The position numbers were made by a program, and so were the translations under genes. From positions 74,876 to 138,875 of the forward strand of contig CAIFEG010000001.1 of the NCBI GenBank assembly GCA_903789415.1: a stretch of 64,000 bases of DNA, given 5' to 3'. Of the stretch, positions 3,551 through 57,206 are shown one piece after another. This DNA comes from an uncultured Eggerthellaceae bacterium (GTDB taxonomy: Bacteria; Actinomycetota; Coriobacteriia; Coriobacteriales; Eggerthellaceae). Each line of letters begins with the position of its first letter. Position 1 is the stretch's first letter. Under the pieces are notes generated by a model. That model had not been told where the DNA came from, made no database searches, and saw only the letters and a list, made by a program, of their open reading frames with translations.

Positions 3551-4749
3551 TTATTTCCTGCTTTCTTGTCGAAGGGGTCATCGGTCAAGCCGTCCTGTGC
3601 CAGCACGGCATTAAGTACGGAAATGTCGGAAGAAACATCAAGGTTCATTTCTTGGAACAGCGAATTGTGCAACTTTGTAAACGCGCGTACGAGCGTGCCG
3701 AGCGTATCCTCAATTTCGTGTCGCGACGTGCTGATACTTTCGCTTTGAAGTGATTGCGCCGCCAATTCGGTATACGTATCAAGCAACTTTTTTGTGAGCG
3801 GCAGATAATAATCGACCATCTGATCCAGGTTCCCAATGACATCCGGGTCTTGTTCGGCGCGATTGAAGATGCTCTCTGCAATAGTGCAGATGGCCTGGGC
3901 TTTCTTTTCAGTATCAGGCGATCCCAACCCTGGTATAACGGCTTTGATCTGCGTTAATACTTGGCGCCCTTGACGCAGCGTTTCCTGTTCTGCATCGGTA
4001 AGAGGACGCTCTTTCTTACTCACCGTTTCCTGGCGAACGCTTTCGCGATACTTCTTCTTGGCTTCTTCTTCAAGATTATTTTGGAATTCCTGATACGCAG
4101 AATCGGTAAGGAATACGGTATTCGCATCGGTATCCACATGAGCCTGCAGAAACAGTCCGTCTTTGATCATTTTTGCGAGGTCTTTGGCAACCCCTTTTAC
4201 CGTGCGGCCTGAACGACCCGCCAGATCAGTAAGCGAAAACGACGGCGAGGCTCCAATAAGGCGACGATACTTAGAGAAACGGCTCACCAGTCCTAAGCGC
4301 TTTCCGCCCGCAACGGTGACGCCGACGCTTACTCCGGTCAATCCCAGCAATATCCAGGACGGAACAACGAGCGCGCTCGCCCCCATGAGTGCACCGATGA
4401 GCATCACAAACCATGTGGCTCCAAAGCCAACCGAGCATAAACCACCAAAGATGGTCATAAGAATCCCAGAAATCTTTTGACTGTGCGGGTTGGCAAAGCG
4501 CGAGGGAGAAACGCGCGCAAGTTCCTGTTGTTCCTGATCAAGCGTCAAACGAGATGCCTGGAACGCCTGGTAATCCTTGTACATCTTGCGGGACGTTTCG
4601 GCGGCCTGAGAAATGCCTTCACCAATACCCTTGGCAGCAGCGTCTACCCCCTGCTGTACCATGCCTTGAATCTTGGTGAAGTCCTGGTGTTCCAGCGCAT
4701 CTTGAATTGCGTCGCCAATTTGATCGGGTATGTTTTTTGACTGAGCCAC
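3547..4749 (-). CDS. xpaC: XpaC-like protein (5-bromo-4-chloroindolyl phosphate hydrolysis family)
   Basis: A 400-residue protein of the XpaC family, which is habitually encoded beside telA. The N-terminal 80 residues are polar and helical. Two or three hydrophobic helices follow (residues about 92-152, ILMTIFGGLCSVGFGATWF onward). Next comes a winged-helix-like segment (SLTDLAGRSGRTVKGVAKDLAKMI, about 185-215) and a helical C-terminal half with KKYRESVRQETVSKKERPL. This suggests a membrane-anchored partner of TelA. The start ATG at 4749 has no strong ribosome site. The enzyme name is historical; actual hydrolase activity is doubtful. Confidence 0.85.
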   Translation of the reverse strand: MAQSKNIPDQIGDAIQDALEHQDFTKIQGMVQQGVDAAAKGIGEGISQAAETSRKMYKDYQAFQASRLTLDQEQQELARVSPSRFANPHSQKISGILMTIFGGLCSVGFGATWFVMLIGALMGASALVVPSWILLGLTGVSVGVTVAGGKRLGLVSRFSKYRRLIGASPSFSLTDLAGRSGRTVKGVAKDLAKMIKDGLFLQAHVDTDANTVFLTDSAYQEFQNNLEEEAKKKYRESVRQETVSKKERPLTDAEQETLRQGRQVLTQIKAVIPGLGSPDTEKKAQAICTIAESIFNRAEQDPDVIGNLDQMVDYYLPLTKKLLDTYTELAAQSLQSESISTSRHEIEDTLGTLVRAFTKLHNSLFQEMNLDVSSDISVLNAVLAQDGLTDDPFDKKAGNK

Positions 4750-20825: not shown

Positions 20826-22803
20826 CTACGCGGTGACCTTATTGCGATAGGTATCCACAGAGTACTTGGTGATATTCGAACGGTTCAAAATACCTACCAT
20901 CTGGCCATTCTTGAGCACTGGCGCCTTCTTCAGGTGGCGCGTTACCAACAGTTCACATGCCTTGGACAGGCTTTCGTCCGCGTCAACAGACAGAACGTTC
21001 TTTGTAGCAATGTCTTCAACATTGGTGCTCATGACATCCTGCATGCGGGATGCAAAGCTGGAATTGTTGCGCTCGATAACCACCATAGAGTACGGGTTCG
21101 TAAATGTCGGTACCTGGTCAGCAAGCAGACCCATGACATCGCCGTCCGACACGAAGCCCGTCAACTTGCCTTCCGCATTTACCACCGGTGCACCAGAAAT
21201 TCCCTTTTCAGAGAACAAACGAAGTGCATCATAGGCCGTCTGTCCTTCGTGCAGGGTGTATACGTCTGGTCTCATGAGGTCGCGGACCGTGACATCACCA
21301 GCTGCTGCAGGTGCTGCGACCGCTTCGGCGTTTCCTGCAGCCTGAGGAGCAGCAGATTCGGCCCGCTGGGGAGCCTTCAAGCGTGTTGCAAACGCAAAGC
21401 CCAAAACAGCCAAAATCAGCGCGAAGATAAAGCCCCAATGGGAACCATTCGCAAATGCTTCTTGAGCGCCCGCGTTTGCCGCCGCAGAACGACCCGCGAT
21501 CAGCAAGCTTGTCGCAAGTGCGGTGCAAACTGCGCCAACTACCTGCTGCAGCGTATTCATGATGGTGCTTCCGTCGGTGGAAAGCTCATGAGGCAGCGAC
21601 GAAAGAGCATGCGTCTGAACTGGTGACATAGCCAACGGAACGCCGACCATCAAAATAATGTTGCACAGCACCACGTAAGCAACAGGCGTGTTGACGCCCG
21701 CGAACAGCAACATCGCGCCACCAATGATTGAGAATCCAAAGCCCAGGAGCGCGGGAACACGTGCGCCGATGCGGTCATAGATGCGGCCGGAAACCATGCT
21801 GACGATAGCGTTCACAATTCCGCCAGGAAGAAGAAGTAGACCAGTCATCGCGACCGGTACCATCATGGCACTTTGATAGAACTGTGGCAGTAAGTACATA
21901 ACCGTCAAGGTAATGCCGAAGTTCAGCATCATCATCAGAGTGCCCAGACGAAAGCCCGAAATGCTCAGCGCGTGGAGATTAAGCACCGGCGCCTTAAGGC
22001 TGAACTGGCGGCGTGCATATACAACCAGGCAGATAATGCCGACTGCGAGTGCAATCAACACCGGAGCGGACACCCATCCATATAAACTTGCCATGCCCAC
22101 GCCAAGGACGATACCGCCGAATGCCAAGGTAGAAAGCAGAATGGAAAGTCCGTCAATGTGTGGCTTGGTAATTTGGTAGGGGTTCACGCAATACCGCGCC
22201 AAGAAAAAGATTGCAAAAATCAGAATGACCGCGAAGCTGAAGAAAATCAGGCGCCACGAACCGACTGCGCACAGAATACCTGCAAGCGTTGGGCCGATTG
22301 CTGGTGCGAACATGATAACCAGGCCAACGGTACCCATTGCCGCACCGATTCTATTCGGTGGAACAACTTCCATAACCATGGAAAACATAAGCGGCAACAC
22401 CAAACCGGTACCAATACCTTGGATGCAACGACCAATTAGAACAACGGAAAATGTTGTTCCGAATCCACTGATCAGCGATCCAACAAAAAAATGCTCCAAC
22501 GGCGAACATGGCGATTTTGCGTGCCTGGAACCACTTGGTGAGCAAGCTTGAGAGCGGCAAAACAATGCTGATAACCAGCATGTATCCGATAACGAGCCAC
22601 TGAGTGATGCTCGTGTCGATGCTGAACGCTTCGCTTAACTGCGGAAGTGCAATGTTCAGTGCGGTTTCACTGTACATTCCCGTAAAACCACCCAGAAGCA
22701 ATCCCATCATGGCTAGCATCGGGCTTTTGACTTTTATACGTGCAGCAGGTGCTCCGTTCTGTGGAACCTGCTTGTTTTGCTGGGTTTGAGCTTCAGTACT
22801 CAA
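20826..22803 (-). pseudogene. MFS (DHA2-like) transporter fused to two CBS domains, frameshifted
   Basis: A multidrug-type MFS permease, with CBS-pair domains at the C-terminus, split by one frameshift. The N-terminal frame (TTG start 22803, GGAAGGGAG upstream) runs through helices 1-3 to KWFQARKIAMFAVGAFF. The rest (VGSLISGFGTTFSVVLIGRC onward) is in another frame ending at 20826. The switch maps to a run of seven A on the + strand at 22485-22491; removing one base restores a continuous protein of about 658 residues. The CBS part carries VRDLMRPDVYTLHEGQ, GISGAPVVNAEG, ISGA- and KKAPVLKNGQMVGI-type segments, which usually bind adenine nucleotides. The defect may be a sequencing error, a phase-variable tract or real decay. 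Confidence 0.85.
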
Positions 22804-22849
22804 GAGTCTCCCTTCCTTTTTTCGAAGTGAGACCTGCCCTGCATTATGG

Positions 22850-22917
22850 GCGTAAAAAAGAAGGGGCTACAACTTGCTCGTTGCAACCCCTTCTGCTTTA
22901 CGCATACTTGGTCTCAC
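22850..22917 (-). promoter_or_regulatory. Leader peptide and intrinsic attenuator before MFS-CBS gene
   Basis: On the - strand a hairpin (22881-22893 with 22860-22872, core GAAGGGG/CCCCTTC) is followed by six T residues, about 45 bp before the transporter start. Outer arms GCGTAAA/TTTACGC (22897-22903 with 22850-22856) extend it. A short frame, MRKAEGVATSKL then stop (22905-22867; possible GTG start at 22917), ends inside the hairpin's second arm, so a translating or stalled ribosome would disrupt the terminator. This is the layout of ribosome-mediated attenuation seen before drug-resistance genes. The ribosome site for the peptide is weak. Confidence 0.5.
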
Positions 22918-23049
22918 TGCGCTTTTCTTTTTTTGACCTTACAAAAACTAGCACAGACGCCGCGGCCTTCGTAAGCGACGAAATTATGGAGTCATAATTC
23001 CTCCATCGTTCGCGACATAAATTCGCTATTTTGCCCCTACCTGCATAAA

Positions 23050-23345
23050 TCACAAAAAATGGGGCAATAATTGCATATTCATCACAAAACATGAGGCAAT
23101 AATCGATGATTCATCACAGGAACTGAGGTAATAGAGGGCGTTCTCTCACAAAAATCGAGACATTCCTGATGCTCCGATCACAAAATCCGGAATTCCTTTG
23201 TACTAGTCAAACTTTGTAGACAGTTTTTTCACTTTCTCATTATTGACGGTAGACATAAGAGTCAGATTTAGATTTGTACTCGTAGACATTTGAGCCGCAT
23301 TTCTTTTAGATCCGTAGACACTGCGCTCAAGGTATCTGCGCGTTC
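23050..23345. repeat. Nine repeat units in 32-33-nt register, two motif classes
   Basis: TCACAAAA-like cores start at 23050, 23082, 23114, 23146 and 23178, exactly 32 nt apart; the first two units also share ATGnGGCAATAAT. After a 38-nt step a second motif, GTAGACA, recurs at 23216, 23249, 23282 and 23314 (33, 33, 32 nt). The units are too divergent between cores to be CRISPR repeats and spacers. They lie beside and partly inside a transposase remnant, so they may be terminal binding repeats of a decayed element. The 22804-23612 gap holds this array, the attenuator, the transposase fragment, another array and a GCA-rich microsatellite (about 23491-23530), but no intact gene. Confidence 0.7.
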
Positions 23346-23402
23346 AATTGTTCCTGCCATATACGCCTTATAAGCCTCATCAGGAGTCTTATAGCCTATT
23401 TT
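23268..23402 (-). pseudogene. C-terminal fragment of an integrase-core transposase
   Basis: An open stretch of 44 codons reads KIGYKTPDEAYKAYMAGTIE and continues to a stop at 23268-23270. The GYKTPDEAY motif is typical of the end of DDE integrase-core (rve) transposases of IS3/IS30/IS481-like elements. The upstream part of the gene is gone: stop codons and a 23-nt repeat array replace it. The GTAGACA repeats run through the fragment. I cannot assign the IS family. Confidence 0.5.
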
Positions 23403-23403
23403 C

Positions 23404-23472
23404 TATTACCGATTTTCCGGACTTTATATTACCGATTTCCCGAATTTCCTATTACCGTTTTTCCGAATTTCT
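23404..23472. repeat. Three 23-nt tandem units with TATTACCG core
   Basis: TATTACC begins at 23404, 23427 and 23450, exactly 23 nt apart, each followed by GnTTTnCCG and an AATTT-like end. A TGTCTAC, the inverse of the GTAGACA core of the neighbouring array, follows at 23473. It could mark the other side of the same decayed mobile element. Confidence 0.6.
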
Positions 23473-23612
23473 GTGTCTACTTAGACGTTAGCAGCAGCAG
23501 CAAAGCAGCAAGCAGCAAGCAGCAAAGCAATGTGACCTTGTCACAGAAAAACAAAACCCTGAATCGTAATCTGAAGCTGAAGAAAAAAGAATCCCATAGA
23601 AAAAGGCGAAAA

Positions 23613-35078: not shown

Positions 35079-35194
35079 ATGCGCTTTTGCTCGTAGACGC
35101 ACTCTTGTGGCGCACTTTTAGTCGTCGACGCACTCTTATAATGCACTTTTGCCCAGCGGTGCACTCTGGTGCACCCTTATGACGCACGCTTATA
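35079..35194. repeat. Degenerate 14-18-nt repeats upstream of the DUF2252 gene
   Basis: GACGCACTCTT and close variants (GCGCACTTTT, ATGCACTTTT, GTGCACTCTG, GTGCACCCTT, ACGCACGCTT) recur about every 14-18 nt across the whole 136-bp spacer between the 124-residue protein gene and the DUF2252 start. No fixed register, unlike the 15, 16 and 21-nt arrays. Confidence 0.5.
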
Positions 35195-56069: not shown

Positions 56070-56152
56070 TTGACAAAAACAGTAAACGACAGTAAAAATA
56101 ATTAAAAACAGTAAACGACAGTAAAAATTTCCGAAAACAGTAAAACAGTGAG
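56070..56152 (+). promoter_or_regulatory. Promoter with six ACAGTAAA operator repeats
   Basis: TTGACA (56070-56075), 17 bp, then TAAAAA gives a promoter. ACAGTAAA or a close variant starts at 56079, 56089, 56108, 56118, 56137 and 56145, with spacings 10, 19, 10, 19 and 8. They form two larger tandem units covering the promoter and leader up to the ATPase start. This strongly suggests cooperative binding of a repressor, perhaps the ATPase itself through its C-terminal winged helix. Confidence 0.6.
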
Positions 56153-56159
56153 TAGCATC

Positions 56160-57206
56160 ATGAAAGCACGGAACCCTTACACATTAACCTTTGGTAAAGA
56201 ACCTACCCAGCTTATTGCACGCATGGAGCAATCCCAACAGGTTATCGATTCCTTCCTCAGCCAGCCCAGTACGCAACAAGTTTATATGGTCACCGGCATA
56301 CGTGGCTCAGGGAAAACAGTCTTCATGACCGACATTGCGCGTCAAATCGCTCGACAGAAAGATTGGATCAGCATAGAGCTTAATCCCGAAAGAGATTTGC
56401 TTGAAAGCCTGGCTGCCAAGCTCTCAAGCGAAAATGAGCTTGCTCATATTTTCCAAACAGCCAAGATCAATCTGTCATTATTCGGATTTGGACTCGAAGT
56501 TAAAGGCGCTGCTCCAATAGCAGAAATCGAAACCGCTCTCCAAAAAATGCTGCAAAGCCTTAAGAACAAGGGGAAGCGGCTGCTTATATGCATCGACGAA
56601 GTTACCAATACACCGCAGATGAGAGCTTTTGCTGCCGCATTCCAAATATTTTTGCGCCAGGAACTTCCCGTCTACTTACTTATGACGGGCTTATACGAAA
56701 ATATCAACGCACTTCAGAATGCAAAAAGTCTGACCTTTCTTTATCGCGCGCCGAAGATTTATCTCGGTCCTCTAAATATCGGGACCATAGCTGAGGATTA
56801 TCACTCAGTTCTTAAATTAAACGACGCCGATTCTCTTATGTTGGCAAAGATGACGAAGGGTTATTCTTTTGCATTCCAAGTACTGGGTTATTTTACCTGG
56901 GAACATCCTGACAACCCGCAAGAAAGCCAACAACTTGCGCGTCAATATCTCGACGAATATTCCTATGACAAGGTATGGTCTGAGCTTTCTCGAAAAGACC
57001 GCGAGGTGCTTTACCGTATCGCCCAAGTAAAATCCGGGCGCATAAAAGAGATCCGTGACGCTCTAGGTATGACCACAAATGAATTTAATCCGTATCGTCA
57101 ACGTTTGATTCGTAAGGGGATCATTTCAGGAGAGGAACGAGGATACGTGCGCATACTTTTACCATTCTTCGACCAGTATGCCCTCGCCCATTACGATATT
57201 ATTTAA
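56160..57206 (+). CDS. AAA-type ATPase with C-terminal winged helix
   Basis: A 348-residue P-loop ATPase of the archaeal-ATPase/AAA_16-like group found in many gut anaerobes. It begins with the family N-terminus MKARNPYTLTFGKEP. Walker A is TGIRGSGKTVF, Walker B LLICIDEVTN, with sensor-like YLLMTGLYENI. The last 70 residues resemble a winged helix (DREVLYRIAQVKSGRIKEIRDAL, RLIRKGIISGEERGYV). I prefer ATG 56160; GTG 56148 is in frame, and neither has a clear ribosome site. Its stop overlaps the convergent Doc gene by 8 nt. Function is unknown; a regulatory or defence role is possible. Confidence 0.8.
   Translation: MKARNPYTLTFGKEPTQLIARMEQSQQVIDSFLSQPSTQQVYMVTGIRGSGKTVFMTDIARQIARQKDWISIELNPERDLLESLAAKLSSENELAHIFQTAKINLSLFGFGLEVKGAAPIAEIETALQKMLQSLKNKGKRLLICIDEVTNTPQMRAFAAAFQIFLRQELPVYLLMTGLYENINALQNAKSLTFLYRAPKIYLGPLNIGTIAEDYHSVLKLNDADSLMLAKMTKGYSFAFQVLGYFTWEHPDNPQESQQLARQYLDEYSYDKVWSELSRKDREVLYRIAQVKSGRIKEIRDALGMTTNEFNPYRQRLIRKGIISGEERGYVRILLPFFDQYALAHYDII

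What the first reader, a model, noticed from the sequence alone, without database searches (positions are those of the whole stretch)
23050..23345. Nine-unit array in strict 32-33-nt register with a motif switch
Five TCACAAAA-type cores (23050, 23082, 23114, 23146, 23178) are exactly 32 nt apart, then four GTAGACA cores (23216, 23249, 23282, 23314) are 32-33 nt apart, overlapping a transposase C-terminal remnant. Conserved cores with diverged remainder in fixed register suggest multiple protein-binding repeats (for example transposon-end sites) rather than CRISPR.
Basis: partly seen in the sequence, partly recalled or inferred. Interest (0 to 1): 0.62.

Follow-up and report, generated by a model that had tools for sequence, protein, structure and literature searches.

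The report
Orphan promoter arrays beside an IS3 remnant
The repeat stretch is a small graveyard: the repeat-bearing end of a broken jumping gene has cut into repeat arrays of a kind that, across many bacteria, sit directly in front of a very common but uncharacterised family of candidate anti-virus ATPases, an association I found in no paper I could search.

Summary
The repeats are real, but they are not one nine-unit array. (1) 23049-23198: 4.7 units of 32 nt with TCACAAAA cores (one is TCACAGGA). (2) 23199-23496: a deleted IS3-family insertion sequence, whose 3' end carries the four GTAGACA cores; an intact copy in Adlercreutzia hattorii has the same four sites 33 nt apart. (3) 23400-23472, inside the remnant: three 23-nt units (TTCGGAAAATCGGTAAT). 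Array 3 matches arrays lying directly upstream of AAA_14/DUF4143 ATPase genes (PADLOC candidate PDC-S01) in relatives. This led to a wider rule. 146 of 267 such ATPase genes, against 6 of 284 control genes, have an upstream direct-repeat array with period 22-24 or 32-34 nt (P = 8e-50). Unit sequence differs between paralogues. Period follows ATPase clade (4 changes on a tree, against about 31 shuffled) and recurs in five other phyla. So array 3 is an orphan of such a gene; array 1 is probably another (period only, no shared unit). Best mechanism, inferred: operator arrays bound by the encoded ATPase for autoregulation. I found no description of the association in the papers searched.

The parts
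23049..23198 (-). Array 1: direct repeats of 32 nt, units at 23049, 23081, 23113, 23145 and 23177 (the last cut after 22 nt by the IS end). Minus-strand core TTTTGTGAT...GCAATTATTGCC. Probable orphan promoter array of the 32/33-nt class; strand inferred.
   Evidence: Units 1-2 are 26/32 identical, later units decay to 12-16/32. The ATPase partner is inferred from period and neighbourhood, not from a shared unit.
23199..23496 (-). IS3-family element remnant of 298 bp (intact copy about 1.6 kb): both ends present, interior replaced. No target-site duplication (CTT / GCA flanks).
   Evidence: ends TGCTGCTAAnGTCTAAGTAGACA and TGYACTAGTCAA... shared with G005/A. hattorii, G018, G041, G042, G048.
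23216..23320 (+). Four GTAGACA cores (23216, 23249, 23282, 23314): repeated sites in the IS 3' end, overlapping the transposase C-terminus; presumed transposase-binding sites
   Evidence: intact copy L026 has GTAGACA/GTGGACA/GTAGACA/GTAGACA at 2578, 2611, 2644, 2677 (33/33/33); L122 has three.
23268..23399 (-). C-terminal remnant of the IS3 transposase OrfB: IGYKTPDEAYKAYMAGTIERADTLSAVSTDLKEMRLKCLRVQI-stop
   Evidence: aligns by eye with SLGYMTPNDFYDAFMAGEVERRDTFAG of the intact OrfB in L026 (NCBIfam NF033516, E 4e-58).
23400..23472 (-). Array 3: three 23-nt units TTCGGAAAAACGGTAATAGGAAATTCGGGAAATCGGTAATATAAAGTCCGGAAAATCGGTAATAG; orphan promoter array of a KWCGKTW-type DUF4143 ATPase
   Evidence: same unit directly upstream of DUF4143 ATPases in G088 (L016), G049 (L013), G006 (L018); subfamily survey; window P 0.001.
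23474..23496 (-). Other (5') end of the IS: TGCTGCTAACGTCTAAGTAGACA on the minus strand
   Evidence: identical or near-identical ends at L010, L011, L012, L014, L022, L026.
22975..23005 (-). GGAGGAATTATGACTCCATAA (approximate place): Shine-Dalgarno-like site plus ATG, stop after 3 codons, downstream of array 1 on the minus strand; possible start of the lost ATPase gene
   Evidence: read directly; inference only.

Best explanation
The locus is debris. A copy of an IS3-family element, whose 3' end carries four 33-nt-spaced GTAGACA sites (presumed transposase-binding sites), lies in what was a cluster of AAA_14/DUF4143 ATPase genes (PADLOC candidate PDC-S01). The ATPase genes are gone and their promoter arrays remain: a 23-nt array inside the IS remnant and a 32-nt array that the IS end cuts in its fifth unit. 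Shown: IS identity and ends; identity of the 23-nt unit with ATPase arrays of relatives; the general rule that KWCGKTW-type ATPases have 23-nt arrays and a second type 32/33-nt arrays at their promoters, with unit sequence specific to the paralogue. Inferred: that the 32-nt TCACAAAA array is of the second type. Proposed mechanism (inferred): the encoded ATPase, a STAND/Orc-like protein with a PD-(D/E)XK-like C-terminal domain, oligomerises on 2-6 evenly spaced sites overlapping its own promoter and represses it. The arrays would be cognate autoregulatory operators that release expression when the ATPase is drawn away or activated, for example by invading DNA.
For: IS. 23-nt unit in front of ATPases in three other genera. 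Rule: 146/267 ATPase genes against 6/284 controls, Fisher 8e-50; KWCGKTW subfamily 71/78 with a significant array; 63 of those at P<=0.01 have lag exactly 23. Period bound to clade: 4 changes on the tree of 149, shuffled mean 31, minimum 26. Unit similarity tracks protein similarity in the 23-nt class: rho 0.40, permutation maximum 0.16. Other phyla: 7 of 7 KWCGKTW-type at lag 23 (six at P 0.003, one at 0.013) and 5 of 7 of the second type at lag 32/33 (a further Collinsella one). Last unit overlaps or abuts a -10-like box in several loci. Invariant Walker motifs and E353-x-D355...E369-x-K371. Fold nearest SSO1545, PAB2304 and DNA-bound Cdc6/Orc1. PADLOC PDC-S01 matches E 3e-55 and 5e-175.
Against: The TCACAAAA unit itself was found in front of no ATPase, so its assignment rests on period, neighbourhood and a weak strand bias. 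No binding data exist. About 40% of sampled ATPases show no significant array by this ungapped test. More distant DUF4143 proteins (Thermus, Emticicia, Rhodoferax) show none or weak ones. In the 32-nt class the unit-protein correlation barely exceeds permutations (0.338 against 0.311). The -10-like box is not at one fixed distance from the last core. How the 23-nt array came to lie between the two IS ends is unexplained.
Confidence: 0.6

Rival explanations
1. All nine units are transposase-binding sites of one or two transposons.
For: GTAGACA sites are IS-end repeats; array 1 abuts the IS end.
Against: Array 1 lies outside the element; none of the other copies of this IS end has such units beside it. 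Its period and AT-rich unit match the ATPase-promoter class.
Confidence: 0.1
2. Array 1 is a multi-site operator for a neighbouring gene (the MFS/CBS transporter at 20826-22803 or the Fe-S/thioredoxin/FAD oxidase genes from 23532), bound by an unrelated regulator.
For: It lies between divergent genes; control genes occasionally have such arrays (6/284).
Against: Background of such arrays is about 2% in control genes against 55% for ATPases; an IS end separates the array from the + strand genes; a terminator-like hairpin at 22894-22859 separates it from the MFS gene.
Confidence: 0.25
3. The ATPase arrays are not self-operators but sites for another factor, for example a host silencer or activator, or a self-address that the nuclease domain reads.
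For: No binding data; 32/33 nt is close to three helical turns, which suits many DNA-binding proteins (inference).
Against: Unit sequence differs between paralogues in one genome (L033, L034, L036) and tracks the protein, which favours cognate recognition.
Confidence: 0.3
4. Degenerate CRISPR array.
For: Regular 32-nt spacing.
Against: Similarity spans most of the unit in copies 1-3 (16-20 of the first 22 nt) with no repeat-spacer alternation; no cas genes were seen near it; such arrays lie in front of ATPase promoters.
Confidence: 0.02

Closest known systems
IS3-family insertion sequences
   Same: orfA/orfB with rve core, NF033516 equivalog match, TG...CA ends
   Different: Four repeated sites spaced 33 nt at one end, overlapping the orfB C-terminus; from general knowledge IS3 members have single terminal inverted repeats. 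The window copy is a 298-bp deletion remnant.
PDC-S01 (PADLOC defence candidate; AAA_14 + DUF4143, PD-(D/E)XK) genes
   Same: The 23-nt array in the window has the same unit as arrays in front of these genes in three other genera
   Different: The gene itself is missing here. The literature I could search describes the proteins (PMC12988326: fourth most common defence in prokaryotes, experimental validation pending for most such candidates) but no promoter arrays.
Iterons / Orc1-Cdc6 origin boxes / MalT boxes (repeated sites for AAA+ or STAND proteins)
   Same: Evenly spaced direct repeats next to a gene for a STAND/Orc-like ATPase; fold matches to DNA-bound Cdc6/Orc1 and to SSO1545
   Different: Arrays sit at the gene's own promoter, in many paralogous single-gene loci, with paralogue-specific units; not tied to a replication origin.

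Membership tests
IS3 family (GTAGACA element) | OrfB with integrase (rve) core of the IS3 type | tested here: met
   Intact copy L026: NF033516 E 3.9e-58; rve_3, rve_2, HTH_21. Window keeps only the C-terminal 43 codons.
IS3 family (GTAGACA element) | Two overlapping frames orfA/orfB | tested here: met
   L026 143-aa ORF 3678-4109 and overlapping OrfB frame
IS3 family (GTAGACA element) | Terminal inverted repeats with TG...CA and target duplication of 3-4 bp | tested here: inconclusive
   TG...CA ends shared by several copies; no clean duplication in the window (CTT/GCA) or in L026.
DUF4143/PDC-S01 promoter array, 23-nt class (array 3) | Period 23 nt and TTCGG(A/T)-type core unit | tested here: met
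DUF4143/PDC-S01 promoter array, 23-nt class (array 3) | Lies directly upstream of a DUF4143 ATPase gene | tested here: not met
   Gene absent; array runs into the OrfB remnant. Filed as an orphan, not as a functional member.
DUF4143/PDC-S01 promoter array, 32/33-nt class (array 1) | Period 32-33 nt | tested here: met
DUF4143/PDC-S01 promoter array, 32/33-nt class (array 1) | Same unit in front of an ATPase in a relative | tested here: not met
   Pattern search of 137 family genomes found only one chance match.
DUF4143/PDC-S01 promoter array | Bound by the encoded ATPase | not testable with these tools
   Needs protein-DNA assays.
CRISPR | Near-identical repeats with unrelated spacers and cas genes | tested here: not met
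   units decay along their whole length; no cas genes seen near it.

The most novel reading that the evidence does not exclude
One of the commonest candidate defence families in prokaryotes (PDC-S01, AAA_14-DUF4143) is a two-part system: a STAND/Orc-like ATPase-nuclease plus a cognate cis array of evenly spaced 23-nt or 32/33-nt sites with a paralogue-specific code. The protein oligomerises on its array, so that the array sets its expression and possibly its resting state or self/non-self sensing. Arrays outlive the genes as fossils, as in this window.
Probability: 0.35. Interest if true: 0.85.

Novelty: new variant of a known kind. Interest (0 to 1): 0.7.

Why it matters
PDC-S01-type ATPases are reported as the fourth most common defence candidate in prokaryotes (PMC12988326), with mechanism unknown. 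A conserved, clade-specific promoter array with paralogue-specific units gives a direct experimental handle: likely DNA ligand, regulation and oligomer geometry (23 or 32/33 nt per step). It also gives a DNA signature for finding such genes, and their fossils, where the protein has been lost.

Tried and rejected
Search of plasmid and phage records with the region's DNA: no match. TCACAAAA pair pattern in 137 family genomes: only a chance match in L128, beside coding sequence with no ATPase. IS end and array patterns in viral contigs: none. Rfam: nothing. Sigma-70 consensus scan of the region: nothing. The first control set of non-ATPase genes (25/188) was contaminated by divergent ORFs sharing the same arrays and was replaced. 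OrfB search at E 1e-40 found only the A. hattorii copy, so the other IS end copies are probably remnants or truncated. Idea that the IS seeks out ATPase loci: ATPases lie within about 1.5 kb of some IS-end copies (L012, L026, L032, L122) but not of others (L010, L011, L014, L022), and L122 was fetched as an ATPase locus, so this is not claimed. PDB sequence search with the ATPase: no relative.

Full report
Observation. The region was read and tested. Five units of 32 nt start at 23049, 23081, 23113, 23145 and 23177. Four have TCACAAAA and the third has TCACAGGA. Units 1 and 2 are 26/32 identical; later units decay. GTAGACA occurs at 23216, 23249, 23282 and 23314. The step between the two series is 38 nt, so they are not one register. 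Autocorrelation of the first part is far above shuffles; that of the second is marginal, because only its 7-nt core repeats. None of this recurs in the 1.88-Mb genome.

The GTAGACA part is an insertion-sequence end. A DNA search of 138 genomes of the same family hit G005, identified through as Adlercreutzia hattorii, at two places 1.6 kb apart. Between them (locus L026) lie two overlapping frames whose products match HTH and rve domains and the NCBIfam IS3-family transposase. Its 3' end carries GTAGACA, GTGGACA, GTAGACA, GTAGACA exactly 33 nt apart, overlapping the C-terminus of OrfB. Its other end, TGCTGCTAAnGTCTAAGTAGACA, is shared by copies in further loci, and in the window lies at 23474-23496. 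The window copy therefore runs from 23199 to 23496, keeps both ends and 43 codons of OrfB, and lacks the rest. There is no target-site duplication. The terminal TGTACTAGTC of the IS cuts the fifth TCACAAAA unit after 22 nt.

The 23-nt part belongs to ATPase promoters. Three hits (G088, G049, G006) matched only the 23-nt part. In all three the repeats (for example CGGAAAATCGGTAACGAATTATTCGGAAAATCGGTAATGACTTGCTCGGAAAATCGGTAATGGCTACAAT) lie directly upstream of a gene for an ATPase of the AAA_14/DUF4143 type; the domains were typed on the A. hattorii homologue. The A. hattorii locus itself has arrays in front of both ATPases flanking the IS.

The rule. I fetched about 90 family-level loci, 68 class-level loci, 80 named loci of the KWCGKTW subfamily chosen by protein alone and phylum-level loci. 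I scored the best ungapped self-match at lags 17-45 upstream of each gene against 200 shuffles. With controls that do not share an ATPase's upstream region, 146 of 267 ATPase genes and 6 of 284 other genes have a significant array at lag 22-24 or 32-34 (Fisher P 8e-50; genes are not independent, so the P value is nominal). In the KWCGKTW subfamily 71 of 78 are significant, nearly all at 23 nt, in Coriobacteriia, Bifidobacterium, Mobiluncus, Clostridia and a Synergistaceae bin. The unit differs between paralogues, also within the window's own genome (L033 33 nt; L034 and L036 23 nt). On a tree of 149 array-bearing ATPases the period class changes 4 times, against a shuffled mean of 31 and minimum of 26. 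Similarity of arrays tracks similarity of proteins, clearly in the 23-nt class and marginally in the 32-nt class. As an out-of-sample test I took both A. hattorii ATPases to plasmid and phage records. Seven KWCGKTW-type genes (Bacteroides x2, Prosthecochloris, Lentilactobacillus, two phage scaffolds from faeces, Collinsella) all gave lag 23, six at P 0.003 and one at 0.013. Of seven second-type genes, five (Segatella, Acinetobacter, Vibrio, Fusobacterium, Agathobacter) gave lag 32 or 33. More distant DUF4143 proteins mostly did not show it, so the rule is one of subfamilies.

What the ATPases are. They match PADLOC's PDC-S01, described as the fourth most common defence in prokaryotes, an ATPase fused to a PD-(D/E)XK-type domain, with experimental validation pending for most candidates of this kind (PMC12988326). 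Walker A/B and ExD...ExK residues are invariant in 31 homologues. The AlphaFold model (pLDDT 91) is closest to archaeal ATPases SSO1545 and PAB2304 and to Cdc6/Orc1 on origin DNA. Whole-length TM-scores of these are modest (0.21-0.53), so this shows class, not function.

Back to the window. The 23-nt array is therefore an orphan promoter array of a lost KWCGKTW-type ATPase. The 32-nt TCACAAAA array has the period of the second class. It is T-rich on the minus strand, as most arrays of that class are on the gene's strand (25 of 36; a weak bias). It points at a GGAGG-ATG on the minus strand followed by a stop and then a terminator-like hairpin. I read it as the orphan array of a second lost ATPase. 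This is inference: no relative has the unit. The Fusobacterium array (TGTGAGTATAATCACA units) shows that such half-sites occur in the class.

Mechanism. Two to six evenly spaced units overlap or abut the promoter, and in many loci a -10-like box lies in or after the last unit. Paralogue-specific units and conserved period per clade suggest that the encoded protein itself binds, one protomer per unit, and controls its own promoter. This step is inferred and untested.

Literature. DUF4143 occurs in one paper of the library and the search with repeats found none. Papers naming PDC-S01 do not, in the passages found, mention arrays. Searches for related wording found nothing relevant. Subscription papers and preprints were not searchable, so novelty is provisional.

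Noticed in passing
window 56074-56144 and gene 56148-57206: A 29-nt direct repeat array (AAAAACAGTAAACGACAGTAAAAATAA) directly in front of an ATPase_2/AAA_16 (STAND-like) ATPase gene. A gene with a similar N-terminus in Adlercreutzia muris (L198, ARNPFTPTFG...) also has a short array (19 nt) upstream, so the array habit may extend to a second ATPase family.
   Followed up: partly
window 22351-22803 and 20826-22565 (minus): The MFS/CBS transporter is split in two overlapping frames near a run of seven A at about 22486: frameshift or assembly error (Pfam).
   Followed up: no
window 22859-22894 (minus), 22823-22834 / 22910-22921: Strong terminator-like hairpin with a flanking inverted repeat upstream of the MFS gene; attenuator, or terminator of the lost gene.
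   Followed up: no
L027 about 2064-2130 (G041): A perfect palindrome of about 64 bp made of two inverted IS left ends (TGCTGCTAACGTCTAAGTAGACATGGAATTCCGGAATTCCATGTCTACTTAGACGTTAGCAGCA): a minimal IS-derived element.
   Followed up: no
L037, upstream of the ATPase at 844-2133: Near-perfect 36-nt repeats (GTGGCTAGAACATACCTGCCGGACATCTGAATGCTC) in front of another DUF4143 ATPase of the own genome, a period outside the two classes.
   Followed up: no
window 35084-35152: 31-nt direct repeat (CTTTTGCTCGTAGACGCACTCTTATAACGCA), context not studied.
   Followed up: no
L026 2569-2710: In the intact IS the 33-nt spacing equals 11 codons, so the GTAGACA sites repeat in frame as V-Y/V-H in the OrfB tail.
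   Followed up: partly
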